From positions 1 through 39,752 of IMG/VR virus record IMGVR_UViG_3300042505_001204: a stretch of 39,752 nucleotides of DNA; one strand, written 5' to 3'. How positions within the stretch are numbered: the first letter of the stretch is position 1; each line of letters opens with the position of its first letter. This DNA is from a virus. The position numbers and the translations under genes are program-made. Below the pieces are notes generated by a model that saw nothing but the letters and a program-made list of their open reading frames with translations, searched no databases and had not been told where the DNA came from. Below, piece after piece: positions 10,320-39,752 of the stretch.

Positions 10320-10540
10320 ACCCGCACCTATCCCGCACGACATAGGCCAAGCCATTGATCCAATTGCTAGATATGGTGCAGACCCTGGGCACCAAAGGCA
10401 TTGGCAACAATAGCCAGCATTTCCCCGCACAAGCCCGCATTTCATAGGCAAATCGCCGGGCAGGGAAGGCACCAAAGGCAGCAGAAGACAGCGTAAGGCA
10501 TCATGTGCAGCCCGCACATTGCCCGCACGGCTTCCCGCAC
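10320..10540 (+). other. Candidate attP region with phased CCCGCAC repeats
   Basis: This 221-bp stretch between Rz and integrase has no gene. CCCGCAC occurs at 10321, 10332, 10424, 10511, 10522 and 10534, with CCCGCAT at 10434. They form three clusters in which neighbours are 10-12 bp apart, about one helical turn. A 13-bp direct repeat GGCACCAAAGGCA lies at 10388-10400 and 10468-10480, and TGGTGC/GCACCA (10374-10379, 10389-10394) forms an inverted pair. Clustered arm-type sites flanking a core with inverted recombinase sites is the usual attP plan of tyrosine integrases. The exact core cannot be fixed without a host attB. Confidence 0.55.
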
Positions 10541-11551
10541 ATGGCCTATTTCCGCAAGCTCGCGTCAGGCAAATGGCGCGCAGAGGTAGAGCTTGCGGGA
10601 GTCCGTGAGACCCGGGGCGGCTTCCTCACCAAGCGCGAGGCCGCAGAGTGGGCAGGCCAGCAAGAGGCAGACATTCGCGCAGGCAAGGCGGGCAAGTGGC
10701 CGCGCAGAACGCTAGCCGATGCAATCACCCGCTACCGTGACGAGATAACCCCAACGAAGGCAAGCGCCAAGGCTGAAACGCTCCGGCTCGATGCCATCTT
10801 GCGCGACCATCCCGCACTGTGCGGGAAATTGCTCGTTGAAGTGACCCCCGACGACTTGGGCGCGTGGGTTGCTCAAAGGCTCCAGACCGTCAAAGGCTCC
10901 TCAGTCAAACGGGAGTCCAACACCTTCAGCAACGTCTGGACGGTGGCGGCTAAGGTTTGGCGGTGGTGCCCCGTAGAGAGTCCGTGGACTTTTGTGAAGA
11001 TGCCCAGCGAGGGGCCGCCTAGGGATAGGCGCGTGAACTGGCGGGAGATTCGCAAGGTCTGTAGGAGGCTCGGCTACGTCACAGGCCAGCCACCTATCAC
11101 CTTGAGTCAGGAGGTCGCCTATGCGTGGCTACTGGCCCTTCGCACGGCCATGCGCTCGGGAGAGTTGCTAGGGCTGACCGTGGAAGCTGTGAACCTGCAA
11201 ACGCGGGTCGCTCGGCTGGATGTTCACAAGACCGTGCGATATACCGGGCGGGCTCGGTTCGTGCCGTTCACCAGGCACGCGGCGCGGCTCTTTGCCGTGA
11301 TGGTCAAAGGCAAGAAGGGCGAACTATTCCGGGTGAGCGACCAAAGCCGGGACGTTCTATTCCGCAAAGCGACCAAGGCTTGCGGCATCGTGGGCATGAG
11401 GTTCCACGACTCAAGGGCCGAAGCTCTCACCCTGCTATCGCGGCGGGTGGACTTGCTGACCTTGCAGAAGATCAGCGGGCACACAGACATTAATCAGTTG
11501 TCCTCAGCTTACTACCGGGAGACCCCGGAGCAAGTGGCGGCACGGCTTTGA
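10541..11551 (+). CDS. int: Tyrosine-recombinase integrase
   Basis: ATG 10541 is preferred over GTG 10505 because it yields the standard N-terminus MAYFRKLASGKWRAEVELAG and leaves the repeats upstream non-coding. The protein has 336 residues. The N-terminal region (1-60) is an arm-binding-like domain, 60-150 a SAM-like core-binding domain, and 165-336 the catalytic domain. Catalytic residues visible are R205 (T-A-M-R-S-G-E), H289 and R292 (F-H-D-S-R), H314 (S-G-H-T-D) and tyrosine Y324 or Y325 (S-A-Y-Y-R-E-T). It should integrate the phage through attP. Its 3' end overlaps a convergent gene by 40 bp. It follows the lysis genes on the same strand with no terminator between. Confidence 0.95.
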   Translation: MAYFRKLASGKWRAEVELAGVRETRGGFLTKREAAEWAGQQEADIRAGKAGKWPRRTLADAITRYRDEITPTKASAKAETLRLDAILRDHPALCGKLLVEVTPDDLGAWVAQRLQTVKGSSVKRESNTFSNVWTVAAKVWRWCPVESPWTFVKMPSEGPPRDRRVNWREIRKVCRRLGYVTGQPPITLSQEVAYAWLLALRTAMRSGELLGLTVEAVNLQTRVARLDVHKTVRYTGRARFVPFTRHAARLFAVMVKGKKGELFRVSDQSRDVLFRKATKACGIVGMRFHDSRAEALTLLSRRVDLLTLQKISGHTDINQLSSAYYRETPEQVAARL

Positions 11552-11882: not shown

Positions 11883-12256
11883 GCCTTCTCCTTGCCCATA
11901 GCGCCAGGATTGGCGGGTAGCGGCATCCAGTGCGAATAGCCAAAGTTGAAGTCAGGGCCAAACCACATATCGATTTCCACAATGTTGTGGTCGGCGTCAA
12001 AGGCAAGCACGCGCTCTTGAACTGGCGGCATCTGCTCGGCCACTGGAATCCAGCGCGCAGCCTTCAAGCGCAGCGCCTCACACTCAGCCCTGCTCTGCTC
12101 TGCGCTGGCTTGCCAAGCTCGCCACTGCTGCTGCACTGACATGAGCTTGTAGATGCCATCAGCGTCCTTGAGCACGGCCAGCGGGGAATAGCCAAGTCCG
12201 TACATGTGCATCTCAAATTGAGCTTGCTCATCGTCAATCCGTTGTGCCTCAGTCAT
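11879..12256 (-). CDS. DUF551-domain protein
   Basis: A 125-residue protein. Residues about 68-115 match the DUF551 pattern: W-I-P-V-x-E-Q-M-P-P-x-x-E-R-V-L-A-F near the start and H-W-M-P-L-P near the end. The N-terminal part (EAQRIDDEQAQFEMHMYGLGYSPLAVLKD... then WRAWQASAEQSRAECEALR) is helical. DUF551 proteins are common in phages and prophages with no established function. The DUF551 part is nearly identical to the 66-residue protein at 22676-22876 on the other strand. Start overlaps the neighbour by 8 bp (ATGACTGA). Confidence 0.85.
   Translation of the reverse strand: MTEAQRIDDEQAQFEMHMYGLGYSPLAVLKDADGIYKLMSVQQQWRAWQASAEQSRAECEALRLKAARWIPVAEQMPPVQERVLAFDADHNIVEIDMWFGPDFNFGYSHWMPLPANPGAMGKEKA
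11922..12034 (-). repeat. Inverted duplication, copy 1 (DUF551 segment)
   Basis: Reverse complement of these 113 bp equals 22724-22836 except for three single-base differences, with no gaps, by direct reading. All three are third-codon-position changes; two are silent and one changes Ile to Val. Confidence 0.95.
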
Positions 12257-14266: not shown

Positions 14267-14415
14267 GCCTCTACCCCCAGCGCCTCTTTAACCAGTTCCT
14301 CGCTAATGCCCAAAGCCTGCGCCGTGGCTGAAATGCGCTTTGCTTCGGGGATGGTGCCCAAAAGGCCGGTGCGCTCGTAAGCGGCGAGGATGCGGTCAAT
14401 TTGTACGATGGTCAT
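14263..14415 (-). CDS. Small helical phage protein, function unknown
   Basis: A 50-residue protein (MTIVQIDRILAAYERTGLLGTIPEAKRISATAQALGISEELVKEALGVEA), overlapping the helicase-methyltransferase gene and the next gene by ATGA. The second half (IPEAKRISATAQALGISEELVKEAL) resembles a helix-turn-helix layout but is too short to be sure. Translation is probably coupled to the large gene upstream. Confidence 0.62.
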   Translation of the reverse strand: MTIVQIDRILAAYERTGLLGTIPEAKRISATAQALGISEELVKEALGVEA

Positions 14416-16907
14416 GCGGCCTCCAGCGCGTCAAACAAGCTCGGCATGCTGAACTCGCGCTCTGCCGACTTCAGGTAGTGAACTTGGTCCAAGAAGTAAG
14501 CCGGGTTCAGCTCGCTGCCGCCACCGCGCCGGCCTTTCAAGATCGCGCGATAGGGCACGGTGCCAAGGCCGCAGAAAGGGTCATAGACCAGTTCGCCCGG
14601 GTTGCTGTAGCGCCCGATCAATCGGTCAACGATGTCGAACTGGAGCGGGCAAACATGCTTCTCGACGGCCCGGCGGCTCTGGTCGCTGTTCAGGGTCAGC
14701 ATGCGCGTCACGTCGTGCCAAACGTCCGGGTGATGGCTGCCGGGCGCAAGGCTCATGAAGGTAGACGGCAGAGCGCCTCGCGCTTCCAGCTCTTCGCCGA
14801 TCTTGATGTGGAACTCGTAGTCATAGACGTTCTGCAGGCTGTACTTGGTGAACATGCTGGCCAGCTTGTCGGGGCCAAGACCCGCCAACTCTTCCGCCGT
14901 GATCTGGCGATTGCCGCTGCTGCGCCAGAAAGCATGCGCGTCAACTTGCCAGTGGGCCCGGGTGTAGTCATCCTTTGACTTGCTCACCGGCAGATCGGCA
15001 TAGCCCCGGCTGCGGTCGGTCTGCGGCTTGCGGAACAAGATCACATATTCAGGCGAGCCAACACCCATCTTGGTGCCGTCCTTGCACTGCTCGCTCCAGC
15101 CCAGCCGGTAGGTCTGGTTGTTCTCTCGCACCACGTCCGTGACGATGGTGATGAGGCCCATGTAGTCAAAGCCGTGTTTGCGACCGTGCATGATGGCCTC
15201 GCAGTGGAACGGGCTCACGGTCGGTGCGCCGGCTCCGGTCACGTTGCCGAACAAGATGCGGTCTTTGACGTGGCAAGCGTAGATTCGGCCCGGCTGCAAG
15301 ATGCGCAGCAGCTCCGGCGTCAGGTAATCCATCTGGCCCCAGAACTGATCGTTGTCCTCGGTGTGGCCGAAGTCGTTGTAGCTCGGGCTGTATTCGTAGT
15401 GGTTGGCGAACGGGATCGATGTCACGATCAAGTCCACCGAGTTTTCGGGCTGCAGCTTTGCCTCTTCCACGCAGTCATTGTTGGCAACGGTGAACCGTTC
15501 CCCTTTGACTTCGATGCGCTCAAGGCCAAGGCTGCGCGCAAGGGTCTCTTGCATCGCCAGTTGATTCAGGCCGAACTTCTTGATGATCTCGCTCATGTTG
15601 TGCACTAGCTCCTTGTGTTGCGTCCATTTGGTTTGCAAGGTGCGGAGTACTTCCCGCTCTGCCTCGCTGTAGACGATGTCGATTCGGACAGGGTGTGGCT
15701 GTTGGAAGCGCTGCACCCGGTGAATGGCTTGAATGAAGTCGTTGAACTTGAATCCGATGCCCGCGAAGATCTCGCGGTGGCAGTGGCGCTGGAAGTTGCA
15801 GCCGCTGCCGGCAATGACGGGCTTCGTGGACAGAACGCGGAACTCGCCTTCCCCGAAGCCAACAATGCGGCGCTCGCGCTCTTCAAGGTCTTGAGACCCC
15901 CAGACGCTCACCGCCTCGGGGATGGCCGATTGGATGGCATGGCGCTCTGCTTCTAGGTCGTGCCAGATCACGAAGTGGTCAGCGGGCGACTCGGCCACGA
16001 GCTGCGCCACGGTGGCAACGCGCGCCGGCATGCTGTCGCGCTTCTCGCCAGCCGCTGCGCTCAGGCCCATGGCCGGATCGTTGAACATGAGCGCCTGTCC
16101 ATCGCGGTCGCAGCCAGCTCTGGTGTAGTCACTGGGTACCTCGTGGTACCGAACGTCCAGCTCCGGCAGGTCATAGCCTTCGTCGCTGTAGCCCAGGTCG
16201 CTCGGGCGCTGCACAAACACGGCCCAGCTCGATACCCACAGCCAGAACTCCTGCTCTTTGTGCGGGTAGAGCGTGAGGTTTCCAGCCTTCTCGCTGTCGC
16301 GCTGAAAGAAGCGGGTGAGCGCTTGGCCGGTATCCATGACACCAAGAAAGCCGGCGTAGTGAATCAGCTCCTTGAATCGGTTCGGCGATGGCGTGGCCGT
16401 GTTCACCAGTTTGAACCGCACGCCATCGAACAGCGGCAGGAACTCTTGGTAGGTCTTGCTGCCAAAGCTGCGCAGCACGCTGGCTTCGTCCAAGCTCACA
16501 GCATCGAACTGCTTCGGATCTAGCTTGCCATCGCGCACGCTCTCGTAGTTCGTCACGTAGCAGCGGTGGCCCGGCGTCATCTCAGCGGCGGAGCGAATGA
16601 ATCGAATGTCAAGCCCGAGCATCGCGGCATCGCGGATCAGCTCTTGCCGAACGCCCAGCGGGCAAACGATCAAGCCCAAGCCGTCCGGTACCGCTCGCAT
16701 GATCTGGCGCAGCCACTCGCACTGCATGACGCTCTTGCCAAGGCCGAAGCTGGCAAAGATGGCGCGGTTGCCGCCTTGCACAGCCCATCGAACGATGTCC
16801 CGCTGGTGCGGGAACAGGATCGGGTGCGCTTCGTCTGGCTCAATGCTGAATCCTTTGAACTGCGCGAGCTTGATCTTCTGGCGTAAGAAAGAGGTGTAGT
16901 CGGTCAT
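14412..16907 (-). CDS. SF2 helicase - DNA methyltransferase fusion
   Basis: An 831-residue two-part enzyme. Residues 31-420 form an SF2/SNF2-like ATPase: Q-type L-F-P-H-Q-R-D-I-V-R (31-40), Walker A F-G-L-G-K-S (54-59), D-E-A-S (140-143), T-A-T-P-S-P (170-175) and a motif VI-like H-R-V-Q-R-F (396-401). Residues 470-831 form an amino-methyltransferase of beta order: motif IV T-S-I-P-F (496-500) precedes motif I D-P-F-C-G-L-G-T (776-783), so it should methylate adenine N6 or cytosine N4. No nuclease domain is visible. Likely role is self-modification of phage DNA against restriction, perhaps while translocating. It starts without a clear ribosome site after a structured 156-bp leader. Confidence 0.9.
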   Translation of the reverse strand: MTDYTSFLRQKIKLAQFKGFSIEPDEAHPILFPHQRDIVRWAVQGGNRAIFASFGLGKSVMQCEWLRQIMRAVPDGLGLIVCPLGVRQELIRDAAMLGLDIRFIRSAAEMTPGHRCYVTNYESVRDGKLDPKQFDAVSLDEASVLRSFGSKTYQEFLPLFDGVRFKLVNTATPSPNRFKELIHYAGFLGVMDTGQALTRFFQRDSEKAGNLTLYPHKEQEFWLWVSSWAVFVQRPSDLGYSDEGYDLPELDVRYHEVPSDYTRAGCDRDGQALMFNDPAMGLSAAAGEKRDSMPARVATVAQLVAESPADHFVIWHDLEAERHAIQSAIPEAVSVWGSQDLEERERRIVGFGEGEFRVLSTKPVIAGSGCNFQRHCHREIFAGIGFKFNDFIQAIHRVQRFQQPHPVRIDIVYSEAEREVLRTLQTKWTQHKELVHNMSEIIKKFGLNQLAMQETLARSLGLERIEVKGERFTVANNDCVEEAKLQPENSVDLIVTSIPFANHYEYSPSYNDFGHTEDNDQFWGQMDYLTPELLRILQPGRIYACHVKDRILFGNVTGAGAPTVSPFHCEAIMHGRKHGFDYMGLITIVTDVVRENNQTYRLGWSEQCKDGTKMGVGSPEYVILFRKPQTDRSRGYADLPVSKSKDDYTRAHWQVDAHAFWRSSGNRQITAEELAGLGPDKLASMFTKYSLQNVYDYEFHIKIGEELEARGALPSTFMSLAPGSHHPDVWHDVTRMLTLNSDQSRRAVEKHVCPLQFDIVDRLIGRYSNPGELVYDPFCGLGTVPYRAILKGRRGGGSELNPAYFLDQVHYLKSAEREFSMPSLFDALEAA

Positions 16908-17252: not shown

Positions 17253-17437
17253 GGCTTGGCCTTGCTCATTTGGTCAATGACTGATGCAAGACCTTCGGCA
17301 AGGTCTTTAACTGCATCAAGCTCGGTGCGGCCATAGCCAGTGGGGCCGCCTTCTTCTTCGCCATCAATGAAGGCGTGCCAATCGAAGTGCCGCACCGGGA
17401 TGGGCGGCGGTTCAAAGCGGGTGATTACGCTGCTCAT
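17249..17437 (-). CDS. Small phage protein, function unknown
   Basis: ATG 17437 overlaps the ERF stop (ATGA), giving 62 residues (MSSVITRFEPPPIPVRHFDWHAFIDGEEEGGPTGYGRTELDAVKDLAEGLASVIDQMSKAKP). A longer reading from 17506 lies inside the ERF gene and is rejected. It has a Pro-rich start, an F-D-W-x-A-F segment and a helical C-terminus of the form GYGRTELDAVKDLAE, a pattern seen in small phage proteins. Function unknown. Confidence 0.7.
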   Translation of the reverse strand: MSSVITRFEPPPIPVRHFDWHAFIDGEEEGGPTGYGRTELDAVKDLAEGLASVIDQMSKAKP

Positions 17438-18084
17438 GCGTTCACCTTGCGGGCGTCTTGGTGGCGCTTGATGCCGGAGCGGATATGCGAGGGCAGCAAA
17501 GACCACAGGGCAATCTTTTGCTCGTTCTCCAAGCCTTCCGCATCAAGACGGTCAACGATGGCAACGAAGTCACCAGACGCCACGAAATCAGCGGCCATCT
17601 CTTTGATGTACTCACGCTCATCGGCTGGGATTGCGTCAAGTGCGCCAGCTGTGGCACTGATGACCCCGCCTGCGTCTTTCTTGGCGGCGGGCTTGTCGGT
17701 CTTCTTCTCGACTGGCGGGCCGCTGTCTAGCGCATCGTGCTCAACGATCTCAAGCGCACAGACCCACAGGTAACGACGCAAGTACGTCTGAACCGCACCG
17801 AGGTTTTGCACCTCATGGCAGCCCTTCAAAGCGGCGCTGGACATGGGCGAGGTAATGAGCACCGATGCGCCATCCTCAATGTCAGTGATGGTCATCGTTG
17901 CGGTGTTCGCGTCAAAGCTCACCAGCGCACACAAGCCCACTTCGTTAAAGATGGTCAGCGCGGGAACAACAAAATCGGCAAGCTCGAAGTAGCTGTAGCC
18001 GGCGAACTTGTTAAGCCCTGTTTTCTTGACTTGGGCGGCGTGGAACTTGGCGCGGGCCTCGTTCAGTTTGCGAAGGACAGACAT
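17434..18084 (-). CDS. erf: ERF-family single-strand annealing protein
   Basis: A 216-residue protein with a GAGGAGA ribosome site. Residues 1-125 match the ERF superfamily: an N-terminal L-N-E-A-R-A-K-F-H start, K-F-A-G-Y-S-Y-F-E-L-A-D-F (26-38), and the hallmark G-A-V-x-T-Y-L-R-R-Y (97-105) followed by H-D-A-L-D. The linker is Lys/Ala/Pro-rich (VEKKTDKPAAKKDAG) and the C-terminus is a separate helical domain. ERF proteins anneal single-stranded DNA and mediate phage recombination, including genome circularisation. No partner exonuclease was seen next to it. Confidence 0.93.
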   Translation of the reverse strand: MSVLRKLNEARAKFHAAQVKKTGLNKFAGYSYFELADFVVPALTIFNEVGLCALVSFDANTATMTITDIEDGASVLITSPMSSAALKGCHEVQNLGAVQTYLRRYLWVCALEIVEHDALDSGPPVEKKTDKPAAKKDAGGVISATAGALDAIPADEREYIKEMAADFVASGDFVAIVDRLDAEGLENEQKIALWSLLPSHIRSGIKRHQDARKVNA

Positions 18085-18359: not shown

Positions 18360-18556
18360 GCCAGCACCCCAGCAAGAATCCACAGAGCCAGAACAACGGC
18401 AAAGGCGGCAACAGGCCAGAACAACGCACCAAAGCCGGCGTGCGGGTCTTCTTCTTCCACGCGGATAAAGCACGACTCAGGGCATGGGCACTTGAGGTCA
18501 CCCTGGTTGCATGGGCCGGTACAGCCGTGGCGGTAATAGCCGGGTTCGGTGTTCAT
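18356..18556 (-). CDS. Small Cys-rich membrane protein
   Basis: ATG 18556, downstream of GAGGAG, gives 66 residues. The N-terminal half has five Cys (HGCTGPCNQGDLKCPCPESC), suggesting metal binding or disulfides. The C-terminal half has one hydrophobic segment (LFWPVAAFAVVLALWILAGVLA) predicted to span the membrane. Overlaps by ATGA and GTGA with both neighbours. An early-expressed single-pass protein with a Cys cluster could act in superinfection exclusion or host takeover, but nothing in the sequence proves this. Confidence 0.65.
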   Translation of the reverse strand: MNTEPGYYRHGCTGPCNQGDLKCPCPESCFIRVEEEDPHAGFGALFWPVAAFAVVLALWILAGVLA

Positions 18557-18942
18557 TCCTCGGTCTCCTCTTCTGGCATCAGTTCCACAGCCAATTCCTT
18601 GATGCGCGCTTTGGTCTTGGCGCACTCAAGAAAGCGGTTTTTGAGCGTGTAGGCAGCCTGTTGGCAGTCCTCGCCAGCGCGGAAGATCAAGGCGAGCAAT
18701 TCGCCATCGGTCAGTTCATCGCCAGCCTGAAAGCGGCGCGAGGCTGCGGGAACGTCCACAAGCGAATTGGCCGGGATGGCTGAATTGGTGGCGAGCCAGC
18801 ATGCGATTTCGCAGGGGTCGCGTTCGATCAGTTCGGCGGCTTCGCTCAAGGCTTCGGCCTCGGTCAAGCGGTCGTCGCTTTCCCAATACTCAGAGGCTTC
18901 GCGGTAGCCCTGCTCGTCGTAGTAACTCTGTGCTGTCTGCAT
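18553..18942 (-). CDS. Acidic protein, first gene of the leftward operon
   Basis: A 129-residue protein with AAGGAG upstream and a promoter about 33 nt before the ATG. It is strongly acidic (SYYDEQGYREASEYWESDDRLTEAEALSEAAELIERDP... ending ELMPEEETEE). It contains no helix-turn-helix or peptidase S24 motif, so it is not a CI-type repressor although it occupies the place where one is often found. The protein will be among the first made after infection. A DNA-mimic or regulator role is possible but unsupported. Confidence 0.75.
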   Translation of the reverse strand: MQTAQSYYDEQGYREASEYWESDDRLTEAEALSEAAELIERDPCEIACWLATNSAIPANSLVDVPAASRRFQAGDELTDGELLALIFRAGEDCQQAAYTLKNRFLECAKTKARIKELAVELMPEEETEE

Positions 18943-18981
18943 CTCTTGCTCCTTCCCGCTTCGTTTTGAGCGAGTGACTGA

Positions 18982-19010
18982 ATTAAAGCACGCCTACAAA
19001 CAAAACGCAA
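18982..19010 (-). promoter_or_regulatory. Leftward early promoter (PL-like)
   Basis: On the minus strand TTGCGT (19005-19010), 17 bp, then TTTAAT (18982-18987) with an extended TG one base before it. Transcription would start near 18975, leaving a 33-nt leader with AAGGAG for the gene starting at 18942. The -10 lies in GGCGTGCTTTAAT, which is repeated exactly at the rightward promoter. Confidence 0.65.
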
Positions 19011-19058
19011 GTGCGCTTTAAGAAAAATGACTAGTAAAAACACTTAGAACAAAAAAGA

Positions 19059-19088
19059 TTGCAAGTCTGTTCGGCGGCGTGCTTTAAT
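19059..19088 (+). promoter_or_regulatory. Rightward early promoter (PR-like)
   Basis: TTGCAA (19059-19064), 18 bp, TTTAAT (19083-19088) with extended TG. The -10 ends only 5 nt before the ATG at 19094, so transcription would start at or next to the start codon. No ribosome site is present, so the first gene seems to be read from a leaderless message. Confidence 0.65.
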
Positions 19089-19093
19089 GCAGC

Positions 19094-19288
19094 ATGCTTA
19101 AAAAATATGCGATTGAGTTGCTTGGCGGCACTCAAACACAAGCCGCCAAAGCTTGCAGGGTTAGCCCGCAGGCCGTGAAAGATTGGCCCGATGTGCTGCC
19201 AAACAGGATTGCGGACAGGATCGAAGCGGCGCTATGGAGAGGGCTTCCCGCTAGCGTCCGCGCCCGTTCAAAATTGCTGAACAAATAA
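19094..19288 (+). CDS. Cro-like helix-turn-helix regulator
   Basis: A 64-residue protein: MLKKYAIELLGGTQTQAAKACRVSPQAVKDWPDVLPNRIADRIEAAL. Residues 12-32 form a helix-turn-helix (T-Q-T-Q-A-A-K-A-C-R-V-S-P-Q-A-V-K-D-W), and the W-x-x-x-L-P-x-R-x-x-D-R-I tail is typical of Cro/YdaS-type proteins. It is the first gene of the rightward operon and should bind the operators just upstream. The start codon lies 5 nt after the -10 box, with no Shine-Dalgarno. Confidence 0.85.
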   Translation: MLKKYAIELLGGTQTQAAKACRVSPQAVKDWPDVLPNRIADRIEAALWRGLPASVRARSKLLNK

Positions 19289-19290
19289 AA

Positions 19291-19410
19291 GTGACAAAAG
19301 CCCAGGCTTACGAGCACCTCAAGGCGCTTTGGCTCGCTCGCAATCCTCTTTGCACCAGCGAGCAGTACGAAGCAGCAATGGCAGAGATTGCGCGGAAGGT
19401 GGGTCTCTGA
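19291..19410 (+). CDS. Tiny helical protein, function unknown
   Basis: A 39-residue protein (MTKAQAYEHLKALWLARNPLCTSEQYEAAMAEIARKVGL) starting at GTG 19291, 2 nt after the Cro-like stop. Its TGA shares a base with the ATG of the initiator gene (TGATG), so the two are translationally coupled. The N-terminal A-Y-x-H-L-K-x-L-W-x-A-R-N-P and the E-Q-Y-E-A-A-M pattern recur in small phage proteins at this position. Function unknown. Confidence 0.68.
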   Translation: MTKAQAYEHLKALWLARNPLCTSEQYEAAMAEIARKVGL

Positions 19411-20264
19411 TGGCAGGCGGCATTGACTGGTTTCGCTGGCATCACGGCACCGTGACAGACCAAAAGTTTCCCCTCGTAGCTCGCAGGGCCGGTGCATCGG
19501 TGGCGGAAGTGATAGCCGTTTGGGCTTGCTTGCTTGAGAGCGCATCGATGAACGAAACAGAGCGCGGCTTACTGAGCGCAGAGCCTGACTTTGAAGCGAT
19601 GGATTGCGCCTTGGGGCTTACCGATGGCAAGGCTTGCGCGATCTTCAAAGCGATGCAGCAGCGTTCACTCGTTGACGAGCATTTGCACGTTGTGGCATGG
19701 CCGAAACGCCAGCCAAAGCGCGAGGACGACACCGCAGCAGAACGCAAGCGCAGACAGCGTGAGCGTGACCATGCGTTGAGCTTGGCAAATGCCGTGACAC
19801 AAGCAGAGTCACGCAATGTCACGCCAAGTCACGATAGAGGAGAGGAGAGTAGAGAAGAGAAGAACAAAGACATATCGGTAGAAGATAAATCTTCTACCTC
19901 GTCGCTAGGAGCGACCAAGCGCCCATCGGTTCCATGCCCCTACGAAGCAATCGTTGAGGCTTACCACTCCGCTTTGCCCATGCTGCCAAGGGTGCGAGTC
20001 ATGGACGAGAAGCGCAAGACGGCGATGCGCAAGCGGTGGGCATGGGTGCTCTCATCGTCAAAAGCAGATGGCACCCCGAGGGCAACGAACGGCGACGAAG
20101 CCTTGGCGTGGTTCGCTGCGTTCTTCGACCGGGCAGGGCATAGCGGCTGGCTGACTGGCCGAACCCCTGGCCGTGGCCATGAGGGATGGACGGCAGACCT
20201 TGACTTCCTCATGACTGACCGAGGCTTGAAAGCCGTGGTGGAACGTACCGAGGTGGCCGCATGA
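19410..20264 (+). CDS. Phage replication initiator (O-like)
   Basis: ATG 19410 (MAGGIDWFRWHHGTVTDQKFPLVARRAGASVAEVIAVWACLLE) gives 284 residues. The N-terminal 100 residues look like a winged-helix DNA-binding domain of replication proteins. Residues 110-170 are a charged, low-complexity linker (AAERKRRQRERD..., EESREEKNKD). The C-terminal part (YEAIVEAYHSALPMLPRVRVMDEKRKTAMRKRW) resembles helicase-loading domains of phage initiators. The linker-coding DNA holds iterons and a palindrome, so the origin probably lies inside the gene as in lambda O. A DnaB-type helicase gene follows with an ATGA overlap. Confidence 0.82.
   Translation: MAGGIDWFRWHHGTVTDQKFPLVARRAGASVAEVIAVWACLLESASMNETERGLLSAEPDFEAMDCALGLTDGKACAIFKAMQQRSLVDEHLHVVAWPKRQPKREDDTAAERKRRQRERDHALSLANAVTQAESRNVTPSHDRGEESREEKNKDISVEDKSSTSSLGATKRPSVPCPYEAIVEAYHSALPMLPRVRVMDEKRKTAMRKRWAWVLSSSKADGTPRATNGDEALAWFAAFFDRAGHSGWLTGRTPGRGHEGWTADLDFLMTDRGLKAVVERTEVAA
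19794..19898 (+). other. Candidate origin of replication inside the initiator gene
   Basis: GTCACG occurs three times at exact 10-bp spacing (19808, 19818, 19828), with an inverted GTGACA just upstream (19794). A purine-only style run (19835-19870) and the AT-richer CATATC follow. Then GGTAGAAGAT (19877-19886) and ATCTTCTACC (19889-19898) form a perfect 10-bp palindrome arm pair with 2 bp between. Iterons plus an unwinding region inside the initiator gene is the lambda ori plan. Confidence 0.6.
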
Positions 20265-21565
20265 GCCGTGAAGCAGAGCAATCCGTACTCGGCGCCTTGA
20301 TGCTCGACGCCGATGTGTTTGACCGTGTGGGCGCAGTGCTGCAAGCGAGCGACTTCGCAGACGGTTTTCATCGGCGCATTTGGGCGGCTATCTCGGGACT
20401 CATCGTGGCAAACAAGCCAGCCGACCCGATCACGGTTTACGCGGCGTTAGGAACTGGCGAGGACGAACACTTGGCGTACCTTGGGGCGCTTGTCTCCGCA
20501 GTGCCTAGCGCCAAGGCGGCAATCCGCTATGCCGAAATCGTCAGGGTATCGGCGATGCAGCGCGCAATCCGCCAAGCCGCGCAAGATGCCCAAGACGTTG
20601 CAGATGGCGAAGCCGGCCCGACCGAAAAACTTGACGCAATCGGCGCGATCTTCGGAAAGCTGGAGCGCCGCAGCGCATCGGAGCCAAAGGCAATCGGCGA
20701 CTTGCTAGCCCAAAGGATCGATGCGATTAACGAGCTTGCAGAGGGTTCAACAACGCCGGGATGGGCTACCCCTCACCCGTTCATCAATAAATCAATGCGG
20801 GGCGGTTTAAGGCCCGGCTCGCTCATTATTTTGGCGGCGCGTCCTGGCGTTGGCAAAAGTAGCTTTGCGATGGACTTGGCAATGAGGCTCGCAGCCGACC
20901 GCTTGCCCGCCTTGTTCATCTCGCAAGAAATGCCAGCCGACGAGCTAACCGACCGGGCCATGTCGAACGCTTCGCGGGTAGCGGGCAACGCGATTGGAAC
21001 CGGGCGGCTATCGGATGACGACTGGCGCAGGCTCACAGAAGGCGTGCAGTCCTTGGCGGGCTTGCCTTTGTGGCTGGACGACAAGCCGGCTCAAACGCTG
21101 CTTGATATCCGATCCAAGGCGCGCAGCACGAAGGGCCTAAAGCTCTTGATCGTGGACTACCTGCAACTGTGCAGCAGTCAGCTAACCAAGGAAAGCCGCA
21201 CGGCCCAAGTGGGCGAAATCAGTCGGGGGCTTAAGGCTCTAGCGAAAGAGCTAGGCATTGCCGTGGTTGCCCTCTCCCAGCTAAATCGTGAGGTTGAAAA
21301 GCGCCTTGGAAAAAGGCCGCAATTGAGCGACTTGCGCGACTCGGGAGAGATTGAACAAGACGCCGATGCGGTTTGGTTTCTTTGGCCTTTGGCGGAAGAG
21401 CAGATGGGCGACGACACCCGGCGCGTCGGCATTGAGATTGCAAAGAACCGAAGCGGCAGCAAGGGGGCGGCAGTCCTGCGCTTTCACCCTTCAACGCAGC
21501 AATGGCAAGAGTCCACAGAGCGCGTCAGCGACTTCACGGCGCGCAACAACAGCACAGAGCTTTGA
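20261..21565 (+). CDS. dnaB: Replicative DNA helicase, DnaB family
   Basis: A 434-residue protein covering both DnaB parts. The N-terminal domain (MSREAEQSVLGALMLDADVFDRV) is followed by a RecA-like domain with Walker A R-P-G-V-G-K-S (194-200), F-I-S-Q-E-M-P (219-225), Walker B L-I-V-D-Y-L-Q-L (296-303), A-L-S-Q-L-N-R-E-V-E-K-R and D-L-R-D-S-G-E-I-E-Q-D-A-D. It unwinds DNA at the phage fork. Overlaps the initiator gene by ATGA, which supports loading by that protein. Full family length. Confidence 0.96.
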   Translation: MSREAEQSVLGALMLDADVFDRVGAVLQASDFADGFHRRIWAAISGLIVANKPADPITVYAALGTGEDEHLAYLGALVSAVPSAKAAIRYAEIVRVSAMQRAIRQAAQDAQDVADGEAGPTEKLDAIGAIFGKLERRSASEPKAIGDLLAQRIDAINELAEGSTTPGWATPHPFINKSMRGGLRPGSLIILAARPGVGKSSFAMDLAMRLAADRLPALFISQEMPADELTDRAMSNASRVAGNAIGTGRLSDDDWRRLTEGVQSLAGLPLWLDDKPAQTLLDIRSKARSTKGLKLLIVDYLQLCSSQLTKESRTAQVGEISRGLKALAKELGIAVVALSQLNREVEKRLGKRPQLSDLRDSGEIEQDADAVWFLWPLAEEQMGDDTRRVGIEIAKNRSGSKGAAVLRFHPSTQQWQESTERVSDFTARNNSTEL

Positions 21566-21579
21566 ACAAGGAGACAGAA

Positions 21580-22050
21580 ATGCAAAACCCCAACTTCCGA
21601 GCCATCAAGGCTCACTACGCAAAGCACGCGGCAGCTATCGCGGCGACTCCTTCAACGCAATGGGCCATTGACCCCTACGCATGGGAGCACGAGGCCCGGA
21701 TTCGCCTGACTCCTATCGAGCGCGGCGTATGGAATGACATTCGATCAATGGGCATGGTGTTCTATCCGCAGTACCCCGTTGGGCGCTTCTTCGTGGACTT
21801 TGCCAATCCAGCCGCAAAGGTGGCGATTGAGTGCGACGGCGCTGCGTATCACCAAGACAAAGCCAAGGACGCAAAGCGCCAAGAAGAGATTGAGGCGATG
21901 GGCTGGACGGTCTACCGCTTGACCGGCAAGGAGTGCATGCAGGACACCGAGCAGGTAGAGGACGAAAACGGGCGGTTGCACATGCAGGTTTCAGCCAGCG
22001 CGCAGCTTTTGCGCGGCATTGATTCGGCGCGGATTGGGGGATTGGCATGA
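21580..22050 (+). CDS. DUF559/Vsr-like PD-(D/E)XK nuclease
   Basis: ATG 21580 with AAGGAG 6 nt upstream gives 156 residues; an earlier frame inside dnaB is rejected. The segment VGRFFVDFANPAAKVAIECDG holds D73 and E84-x-D86, the acidic core of a PD-(D/E)XK fold as in DUF559 and Vsr mismatch endonucleases, followed by Y-H-Q-D-x-x-K-D-A-K-R-Q-E-E-I-E-A-M-G-W-T-V-Y-R-L-T-G-K, which matches DUF559 ends. Probably a nickase or structure-specific nuclease in phage replication or recombination. Substrate unknown. Confidence 0.82.
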   Translation: MQNPNFRAIKAHYAKHAAAIAATPSTQWAIDPYAWEHEARIRLTPIERGVWNDIRSMGMVFYPQYPVGRFFVDFANPAAKVAIECDGAAYHQDKAKDAKRQEEIEAMGWTVYRLTGKECMQDTEQVEDENGRLHMQVSASAQLLRGIDSARIGGLA

Positions 22051-22679
22051 CACGCGCACACACCGACAAAGGCGAACTTTTCCTAAAAGTCCTCGGCCTT
22101 ATCAAAGCATCCGGCGCTTCTGGAATCACTACCGCAGACCTAATGGAGAAGTCTGGACTCAGCCGCCGAAGCATCCAGAACCACACCAGCGACCTCCGCT
22201 TGCGCGGCTACACGGTCAGCGCAGGCCACTGCAACGCTAGGGTGCATCTCACCAGCGAACACCCCGCCAAGGTCGTGCAGAAGGCCGCAGAAGACGCAGA
22301 TGCAGCATGGCGCGCCGCACAGGAGCCGATTAAGGCAATCGCCCGGCAAAAGCGCCTAGACCGGCAAAAGGCGTATTGCAAGGAATGGCGCAAAACCGGG
22401 CCAGTTGGGCAGTCCAAGGCCAAGCCAAAGGCCAAGGCCGAAGCCCAGGCGGCAAACACGGTTGCCAAGGCGATCAAAGTGCTTGACCGCAAGCCGTGGG
22501 AGCCGAAGCCAAAGCCATTGCCGCCCACGGTGACATGGTGCGCGCCAGAGCGGCACTACGTCGAACCGACGAAGCCGGGCAGGTATGAGGTGCTGGAGGT
22601 GGCGGGCTGCTTTAGCTCCATGAAGCCAGGGCAGTACGCATTCGAGCCGGCGAGCGTTGCGGCAAAGGTGGTTGCATGA
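22047..22679 (+). CDS. Winged-helix DNA-binding protein
   Basis: A 210-residue protein, ATGA-coupled to the nuclease. Residues 8-60 form a winged helix (GELFLKVLGLIKASGASGITTADLMEKSGLSRRSIQNHTSDLRLRGYTV). Residues about 85-160 are a Lys/Ala/Pro-rich linker and the C-terminus (CAPERHYVEPTKPGRYEVLEVAGCFSSMKPGQY) is compact. Likely a regulator of early or middle genes. The specific family was not recognised. Confidence 0.75.
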   Translation: MTRAHTDKGELFLKVLGLIKASGASGITTADLMEKSGLSRRSIQNHTSDLRLRGYTVSAGHCNARVHLTSEHPAKVVQKAAEDADAAWRAAQEPIKAIARQKRLDRQKAYCKEWRKTGPVGQSKAKPKAKAEAQAANTVAKAIKVLDRKPWEPKPKPLPPTVTWCAPERHYVEPTKPGRYEVLEVAGCFSSMKPGQYAFEPASVAAKVVA

Positions 22680-22876
22680 GCGCCGATAAGCAGACTCAAG
22701 CCGCTTGGATTCCTGTAAGCGAACAGATGCCGCCAGTTCAAGAGCGTGTGCTTGCCTTTGACGCCGACCACAACATTGTGGAAGTCGATATGTGGTTTGG
22801 CCCTGACTTCAATTTTGGCTATTCGCACTGGATGCCCATCCCTGCGAATCCAAATGCCAAGGATTCCGCCAAATGA
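22676..22876 (+). CDS. Minimal DUF551 protein
   Basis: A 66-residue protein that is almost only a DUF551 domain: WIPVSEQMPPVQERVLAF... to HWMPIPANP. Its DNA at 22724-22836 is an inverted near-identical copy of 11922-12034 in the leftward operon. Overlaps both neighbours by ATGA. The ~20 residues that precede the duplicated core and the end (NAKDSAK) differ from the other copy, so only the domain core was copied or kept identical. Function unknown. Confidence 0.83.
   Translation: MSADKQTQAAWIPVSEQMPPVQERVLAFDADHNIVEVDMWFGPDFNFGYSHWMPIPANPNAKDSAK
22724..22836 (+). repeat. Inverted duplication, copy 2 (DUF551 segment)
   Basis: 113 bp identical to the reverse complement of 11922-12034 except at three positions, without gaps. 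Because the copies are in opposite orientation about 10.7 kb apart, recombination between them would invert the whole early control region. Confidence 0.95.
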
Positions 22877-23358
22877 GCCAGCGATTCAGCACCACGGCTC
22901 TAAACGCCCAGCACGGCCACACCGTAGTGCTTGACTTGTGGGAATGGGCCAAGCCCCGCTTACTCATGGGCTACAAGCTAAACGTCACCGTTGACGACGT
23001 AAAGAGCCGGGAGCAGGAGAACCTTTATCACTCCTGCTTCACCGACCTTTCCAAGCACTGCGAACTGGCCGGCATGAAGCGCCCCGCAGAGGAATGGAAG
23101 CGGGCTTTGTTGCAGGCGTTCTATGAAGCCACCAGCAACGACCCCGACTTTGCCGACGACTGGAAGACTCGCGCACCAAGGATGGTTCCCGACCTTTACG
23201 GGCGCGGGGTTGTGTTCATCCCGATTGAGTCGAAGGGGTTCACCAGAAACCTAGCCTCAGGGTTTATCACATTCGTTCATTCCGTAGGAGATGAGCGCGG
23301 GGTTAAGTGGAGCCGCACTAGCTTGGGCCGTGAAGTTCCTGATGAGGTGGCCGCATGA
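22873..23358 (+). CDS. ninB: NinB-like recombination protein
   Basis: A 161-residue protein matching NinB in size and pattern: V-D-D-V-K-S-R-E-Q-E-N-L-Y-H-S-C-F-T-D-L-S-K-H-C followed by K-R-P-A-E-E-W-K-R-A-L-L-Q-A-F, and the C-terminal S-K-G-F-T-R-N-L-A-S-G-F-I-T-F-V-H-S-V-G-D-E-R-G-V-K-W. Lambda NinB (Orf) binds single-stranded DNA and SSB and supports Red recombination. Here it would work with ERF and NinG. Start and stop overlap neighbours by ATGA. Confidence 0.9.
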   Translation: MSQRFSTTALNAQHGHTVVLDLWEWAKPRLLMGYKLNVTVDDVKSREQENLYHSCFTDLSKHCELAGMKRPAEEWKRALLQAFYEATSNDPDFADDWKTRAPRMVPDLYGRGVVFIPIESKGFTRNLASGFITFVHSVGDERGVKWSRTSLGREVPDEVAA

Positions 23359-23573
23359 GCAACTACGGAAACTGCTTTGCGGCTGTGCAACTCCTGACCA
23401 AAGCCCCGCGCACATGCAGCGAGCTAGCGGGCTTGATTGGGGTAGGGCAGGCGGCGGTTTATCGCTACATCAAGGAAATGGAAGCGGAGGGCTTGATTCG
23501 CCCAACGGTTCCACGACCGAGGACGGAGGGGTACATCGGCGCGGCTGAAACGGTTTGGGAGTGGGCACCATGA
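23355..23573 (+). CDS. Small winged-helix protein
   Basis: A 72-residue protein: CFAAVQLLTKAPRTCSELAGLIGVGQAAVYRYIKEMEAEGLIRPTVPRP. This is a clear winged helix-turn-helix of the type that recognises DNA through A-A-V-Y-R-Y-I. It may be a small transcription regulator of the rightward operon. Overlaps NinB and the next gene by ATGA. Target unknown. Confidence 0.78.
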   Translation: MSNYGNCFAAVQLLTKAPRTCSELAGLIGVGQAAVYRYIKEMEAEGLIRPTVPRPRTEGYIGAAETVWEWAP

Positions 23574-39548: not shown

Positions 39549-39752
39549 GCAGCATTACCCTAAACCCCGGCTCTGGCGGTTCGACGGTTGCAACGGACAT
39601 TCACGGTGGCGATCACTACCAAATCAACAAGGTAGCCGGGAACCGCGTCAGTCAGTGGCCGAACTACAGCCCGCCTTCTGACACCTTCCCAAGCCCGCTC
39701 AATATCGACGACTTCGGGAGCCTGCAAACACGCGGCGCGGTGCTGACGGATG
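39545..39752 (+). CDS. Tail/virion structural protein, N-terminal part (3'-truncated by window edge)
   Basis: ATG 39545 overlaps the previous stop (ATGA). The visible 69 codons (MSSITLNPGSGGSTVATDIHGGDHYQINKVAG...) end with G-S-L-Q-T-R-G-A-V-L-T-D plus one base. The start pattern S-x-T-L-N-x-G-x-G-G-x-x-V-A-T-D and H-x-x-x-K-V is typical of phage tail proteins whose next segment reads E-G-x-F-R-x-x-F; the other window end opens with G-T-F-R-V-N-F in frame 1. So this is the 5' part of the gene at 1-1632, with about 2 nt missing between. The whole protein would be about 610 residues. Confidence 0.8.
   Translation, partial: MSSITLNPGSGGSTVATDIHGGDHYQINKVAGNRVSQWPNYSPPSDTFPSPLNIDDFGSLQTRGAVLTD

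What the first reader, a model, noticed from the sequence alone, without database searches (positions are those of the whole stretch)
18943..19093. Mirror-image early promoters with an apparently leaderless cro
The 13-bp block GGCGTGCTTTAAT occurs in both directions and contains both -10 boxes (extended TG type) with -35 boxes at 17 and 18 bp. A repressor bound to this block would block both promoters equally. On the right the -10 ends 5 nt before the Cro-like ATG, and there is no Shine-Dalgarno, so cro is probably read from a leaderless message. In lambda it is cI from PRM that is leaderless, so here the roles look swapped.
Basis: partly seen in the sequence, partly recalled or inferred. Interest (0 to 1): 0.6.

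Follow-up and report, generated by a model that had tools for sequence, protein, structure and literature searches.

The report
Leaderless cro, back-to-back promoters, no cI
A complete phage genome has its two early promoters back to back, each covered by a Cro-type operator, with the usual cI repressor gene missing between them and a cro gene that seems to be translated from an mRNA starting exactly at its ATG; relatives show that the cro start is a conserved family trait and that the loss of cI recurs.

Summary
The sequence observation is confirmed. GGCGTGCTTTAAT lies once on each strand (19076-19088 +, 18982-18994 -). Each copy holds a TG-extended TTTAAT -10, with TTG-type -35 boxes at 17 and 18 bp. 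The right -10 ends 5 nt before the cro ATG, and there is no Shine-Dalgarno (SD).

Leaderless cro is well supported by comparison. In 73 non-redundant homologous loci, 61 have a -10-like hexamer ending 5-7 nt before ATG. None has an SD, apart from one mis-set start. A member of the same P22-Cro fold group, PY54, has RACE-proven leaderless cro.

The block is a Cro operator. Cro residue 30 covaries with one half-site base (K-G, Q-A, D-C, L-T), and the window (D, GCTTTAA) fits.

"Roles swapped" is wrong. This genome has no cI-type repressor: the contig ends abut in a relative, and HTH_3, S24 and a CI profile find none. In relatives cI sits between OL and OR, mostly without an SD of its own. Here OL1/OL2 and OR1 are only about 90 bp apart, so the mirror symmetry is PL and PR brought together without cI.

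The same cI-less layout recurs in 10 of 72 loci. Best reading: Cro alone tunes both early promoters. Nothing was tested at the bench.

The parts
19083..19088 (+). PR -10, TG-extended TTTAAT; ends 5 nt before the cro ATG
   Evidence: Sequence; same position in 61/73 non-redundant homologous loci
19059..19064 (+). PR -35 (TTGCAA), 18-bp spacer
   Evidence: Sequence; relatives have TTGAC/TTGCA at the matching place
19072..19087 (+). OR1, dyad of class TTAAAGCNNGCTTTAA with one intact half-site (GCTTTAA) over the PR -10
   Evidence: L084/L085 carry near-perfect dyads GTAAAGCATGCTTTAA / GTAAAGTATGCTTTAA at the same place; Cro residue D30 matches the GC half-site class
18982..18987 (-). PL -10 (TG-extended TTTAAT)
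   Evidence: Sequence
19005..19010 (-). PL -35 (TTGCGT), 17-bp spacer
   Evidence: Sequence
18983..18998 (-). OL1, operator over the PL -10 (11/14 of the dyad)
   Evidence: Best match to TTAAAGCNNGCTTTAA in the whole genome
19006..19021 (-). OL2, second left operator overlapping the PL -35; 23 bp from OL1, the spacing of OL1/OL2 and OR1/OR2 pairs in relatives
19094..19288 (+). cro-like gene, 64 aa, predicted leaderless (transcript start at A19094)
   Evidence: Pfam P22_Cro E 1.3e-5, below the curated cut-off; phrog_409 E 2e-7; family profile hits P22 Cro 1RZS E 4e-11 and 2HIN (N15 Cro) E 0.005
18553..18942 (-). first gene of the left operon, 129 aa, unknown; ordinary leader with SD AAGGAG at 18954-18949
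   Evidence: no PHROG match, no Pfam match over its cut-off
17434..18084 (-). Erf-like single-strand annealing protein, left operon
14412..16907 (-). DNA methylase/helicase, left operon
19329..20264 (+). O-like replication initiation gene, right operon
20261..21565 (+). DnaB-like helicase, right operon
10505..11551 (+). tyrosine integrase with the R..HxxR..H..Y residues in place
   Evidence: residues read

Best explanation
This is the control region of a lambdoid phage from which cI, and all that normally lies between OL and OR, is missing. PL (with OL1 and OL2) and PR (with OR1) stand back to back about 90 bp apart. PR fires the right operon (cro, O, DnaB). Its transcript starts at the A of the cro ATG, so cro is translated from a leaderless mRNA. 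PL fires the left operon through an ordinary leader with an SD. Cro, reading GCTTTAA half-sites with Asp30 of its recognition helix, binds over both -10 boxes and over the PL -35, and so turns both early operons and itself down. Shown: the sequence anatomy, absence of a recognisable cI from a genome whose ends join, conservation of the leaderless geometry, the residue/operator covariation, and recurrence of the cI-less layout. Inferred: the transcript start, Cro binding, and loss of cI-based lysogeny.
For: Leaderless: 61/73 non-redundant loci have a -10-like hexamer 5-7 nt before ATG, against a mean of 5.9 (maximum 22) at other distances; no SD except one mis-set start. In the first 39 loci: 0/39 with SD against 69/197 large ORFs of the same loci, and C just before ATG in 32/39. 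PY54 cro mRNA starts at AUG by RACE (PMC4488713), and its -10 CATAAT lies 6 nt before ATG. Operator: the dyad class recurs over the -10 in relatives, with OR2 and OL1/OL2 at 23-24 bp spacing. Cro residue 30 against the half-site base: K-G 36 (N 1), Q-A 7/7, D-C 3 with Q-C 7, L-T 3 (Q 1); in a simpler automatic parse of 56 loci, 0/20,000 permutations reach the observed association. No cI: the only HTH_3 match is cro itself, there is no S24 peptidase, and a family CI profile finds only cro weakly (E 0.02) while scoring many CIs in loci that were not used to build it. Window base 1 and base 39750 are adjacent, 4 nt apart, in relative contig G007. cI lies between OL and OR in relatives, with OL 0.7-3.8 kb away. 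Recurrence: 10/72 loci lack cI. Their left genes carry an SD and cro does not. G001 (40 kb) and L115's record (36 kb) show no CI-type match over the cut-off and no integrase.
Against: No transcript or binding data exist for this phage. TTTAAT lacks the key A at -11, so both promoters are weak by consensus. The left halves of OR1 and OL1 are degenerate, and OR2 is not recognisable. An intact integrase is odd in a phage without a repressor. A repressor of another type cannot be excluded: two HTH-like genes exist in the right operon (22047-22679 and 23355-23573). The operator itself is held near the ATG, so part of the fixed spacing could reflect operator rather than transcript-start constraint. 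The window and L002 share nearly the same control region, so they are not independent.
Confidence: 0.8

Rival explanations
1. The real cro promoter lies further upstream, giving an ordinary leader; the block is only an operator or a chance repeat.
For: TTTAAT lacks A at -11; a consensus scan finds no promoter.
Against: No SD anywhere before ATG in the family while neighbouring left genes have one; the -10-like hexamer is fixed 5-7 nt before ATG in 61/73 loci; PY54 RACE.
Confidence: 0.12
2. The phage is still temperate: a repressor of an unrelated kind (for example the HTH genes at 22047-22679 or 23355-23573), or Cro itself, keeps the prophage silent through the same operators.
For: Intact integrase; weak HTH matches.
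Against: Both HTH genes lie in the right operon that such a repressor would have to shut off; no CI-type protein found; cI-less relatives G001 and L115 lack an integrase.
Confidence: 0.2
3. Assembly artefact or misbinned deletion: cI was lost in assembly, not in the virus.
For: Metagenomic contig.
Against: The same control region appears in a second contig from another metagenome (L002), and similar cI-less layouts with other operators and other left genes appear in at least 8 further loci.
Confidence: 0.03
4. One reading: lambda roles swapped, cro leaderless in place of cI.
For: cro looks leaderless.
Against: No cI here; in relatives 12 of 14 cI genes also lack an SD, and PY54 cI and cro are both leaderless.
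Confidence: 0.03

Closest known systems
Phage PY54 immB cI/cro region (PMC4488713)
   Same: P22-type all-alpha Cro; -10 ends about 6 nt before cro ATG; leaderless cro mRNA shown by RACE.
   Different: PY54 has cI next to cro, one Cro operator (OR3) far from the cro -10, and is a telomere phage; here cI is absent and the operators cover both -10 boxes.
Salmonella phage P22 OR/OL, c2 and Cro
   Same: Cro is the closest solved relative (1RZS); OR1 holds a CTTTAAT half-site like the window's; lambdoid gene order with Erf on the left and cro and replication genes on the right.
   Different: P22 cro has a leader of about 25 nt with an SD, and c2 lies between OL and OR.
Lambda PL-cI-PR switch
   Same: Two divergent early operons repressed at like operators overlapping the promoters.
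   Different: No cI or PRM between them; cro rather than cI is leaderless; PL and PR are about 100 bp apart instead of about 2.4 kb (from memory).
Uncultured cI-less relatives found here (L087, L104, L115, L121, L128, L194/G001, L197, L215, L258)
   Same: Cro of the same family, no cI between the divergent genes, cro without SD, left gene with SD.
   Different: Other operator classes, unrelated left genes; the two large records lack an integrase.

Membership tests
P22-type Cro (PF14549) | Sequence match to the family profile | tested here: inconclusive
   E 1.3e-5 but 25.3 bits against a cut-off of 30.2; the family alignment hits P22 Cro 1RZS at E 4e-11
P22-type Cro (PF14549) | Position between divergent early promoters, first gene of the right operon before replication genes | tested here: met
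Leaderless gene | mRNA 5' end at the start codon | not testable with these tools
   Needs RACE or TSS sequencing
Leaderless gene | ATG start, no SD, -10 5-8 nt upstream, conserved in homologs | tested here: met
Lambdoid CI/Cro immunity switch | cI repressor gene between OL and OR | tested here: not met
   151-bp gap between divergent genes
Lambdoid CI/Cro immunity switch | Related operators overlapping PL and PR | tested here: met
Temperate phage | Integrase | tested here: met
Temperate phage | Prophage repressor | tested here: not met
   No CI-type protein; other repressor types not excluded

The most novel reading that the evidence does not exclude
A recurrent natural circuit: lambdoid phages that dropped cI several times and kept a Cro-only, self-limiting pair of back-to-back early promoters with a leaderless cro. 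In this integrase-bearing genome, Cro (or an unrecognised repressor) would act at these operators as the only brake and could still support a silent or carrier state.
Probability: 0.25. Interest if true: 0.72.

Novelty: new variant of a known kind. Interest (0 to 1): 0.52.

Why it matters
Leaderless cro was known to me from one experiment (PY54). Here the same geometry is a conserved property of a large, almost uncultured Cro family, so leaderless translation of a phage decision gene becomes a general, testable trait. The cI-less layout gives repeated natural experiments on what Cro does alone, and on how temperate phages may become virulent. The residue-30/half-site code makes operator specificity predictable from sequence.

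Tried and rejected
Nucleotide search for the control region in named phages: no match. tblastn of several family Cros against 50,697 phage records gave only weak hits, so the family has no close cultured member there. A fourth operator at GCATGCTTAAA (19087-19102) was rejected: it overlaps OR1 and follows from the conserved GC-ATG-CTN-AAR start of the gene family. The 'swapped roles' idea was rejected. A pattern scan for the exact back-to-back block found only the sister contig, so other cI-less cases had to be found through Cro. The Cro tree (52 columns) is too poorly resolved to count cI losses: on it the label needs 10 changes, as many as shuffled labels, but well-supported branches force only 2. 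A profile from too diverse an alignment could not be used for scanning.

Full report
**What the sequence shows.** The 13-mer GGCGTGCTTTAAT occurs once on each strand of the whole window, at 19076-19088 (+) and 18982-18994 (-). The inverted repeat reaches 25 bp at 84%. Each copy holds a TG-extended TTTAAT. The -35 hexamers are TTGCAA (18-bp spacer, right) and TTGCGT (17-bp spacer, left). The right -10 ends 5 nt before ATG 19094 with no Shine-Dalgarno (SD); the left gene (ATG 18942) has a leader of about 40 nt and AAGGAG. A plain consensus scan calls neither promoter, because TTTAAT has T where A is preferred at -11.

**Neighbourhood.** The layout is lambdoid: integrase 10505-11551, left operon with methylase/helicase and Erf, cro-like gene, O-like gene, DnaB, NinB, NinG, terminase, portal. 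The 64-aa protein is a P22-type Cro. It scores below the Pfam cut-off, but a profile of its family finds P22 Cro 1RZS at E 4e-11.

**Leaderless cro.** Relatives from viral and genome contigs were aligned on the cro ATG. In the first 39 non-redundant loci, 32 have a -10-like hexamer ending 5-7 nt before ATG (other five-position windows: mean 4.2, maximum 9). None has an SD, against 69 of 197 large ORFs of the same loci, and C precedes the ATG in 32. In the enlarged set of 73, 61 fit (three-position windows elsewhere: mean 5.9, maximum 22), and the only SD flag is a locus whose start I set 6 nt too late. PY54 cro mRNA begins at its AUG by RACE (PMC4488713), with CATAAT 6 nt before ATG. P22 and a Pseudomonas phage with a related Cro have leaders with SD-like sequence, so not all P22-type Cros are leaderless. 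The transcript start in the window remains an inference.

**The block is an operator.** In relatives a 16-bp dyad covers the cro -10, a second one 23-24 bp upstream covers the -35, and a mirrored OL1/OL2 pair lies 0.7-3.8 kb to the left. L084 and L085 have dyads GTAAAGCATGCTTTAA and GTAAAGTATGCTTTAA at the place of the window's block. The window therefore has OL1 (18983-18998), OL2 (19006-19021, 23 bp from OL1) and OR1 (19072-19087), each with one intact half-site. The Cro residue just before the invariant Trp31 covaries with the second base of the half-site GxTT: K with G (36, plus one N), Q with A (7 of 7), D or Q with C (3 and 7), L with T (3, plus one Q) (permutations 0/20,000 in a simpler parse). 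The D class (window, L084, L085) is exactly the GCTTTAA class. This matches the usual residue-base preferences and supports Cro as the protein that reads the block.

**cI is missing.** In relatives a CI-type gene faces cro, with its ATG usually about 70 bp from the cro ATG. In the window the only HTH_3 match is cro, there is no S24 peptidase, and a profile of the family's CIs finds nothing but cro weakly (E 0.02), while it finds many CIs in loci not used to build it. The genome is complete to within a few bases: window base 1 and base 39750 are 4 nt apart in contig G007. So OL and OR stand about 90 bp apart because nothing is left between them. The same control region is in a second contig, L002.

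**The cI-less layout recurs.** Ten of 72 non-redundant loci with enough upstream sequence lack a divergent CI: window, L087, L104, L115, L121, L128, L194 (= G001), L197, L215, L258. Several show mirrored operators over two divergent promoters. The left genes carry an SD and cro does not (the left start chosen for L215 is unsure). G001 (40 kb) and the L115 record (36 kb) have no CI-type match over the cut-off and no integrase. How many independent losses this represents cannot be counted on a 52-column tree.

**Interpretation.** The best reading is a lambdoid control region reduced to Cro and its operators, with leaderless cro. 'Roles swapped' does not hold: there is no cI here, and in relatives 12 of 14 cI genes lack an SD too. 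The surprising residue is the intact integrase. Either this is a recent loss, or another repressor exists.

Noticed in passing
window 1 and 39752: The two contig ends abut (4 nt apart) in a relative contig (G007/L181), so the window is a circularly permuted, essentially complete genome.
   Followed up: yes
window 11907-12057 (-) and 22676-22876 (+): DUF551-like small genes (phrog_924/phrog_60) occur in both the left and the right operon; a stretch of sister contig L022 aligned in its right operon matches the left-operon copy at 87%.
   Followed up: no
window 14412-16907 (-): 831-aa DNA methylase/helicase about 71% identical in DNA to Pseudomonas aeruginosa phage genes over about 1.2 kb, variously annotated as methylase or SNF2 helicase.
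   Followed up: no
window 21502-22050 (+): DUF559/MTES_1575-type nuclease overlapping the end of the DnaB gene.
   Followed up: no
L128: A Cro of this family sits on a 5-kb contig binned in a Planctomycetota MAG (KLAP200), probably a phage contig; the other genome hits are mostly Burkholderiales, pointing to a betaproteobacterial host.
   Followed up: no
loci L002-L261, positions -2 and -1 of cro: GC directly before the ATG is strongly conserved (C at -1 in 32/39, G at -2 in 27/39), as expected if the A of ATG is the transcript start.
   Followed up: partly
L128 and L197 upstream of cro: The cI-less loci L128 and L197 share the same left gene start (MTxS.LADLP.LA.SPQAAADGFRAAL), so they are one lineage.
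   Followed up: partly
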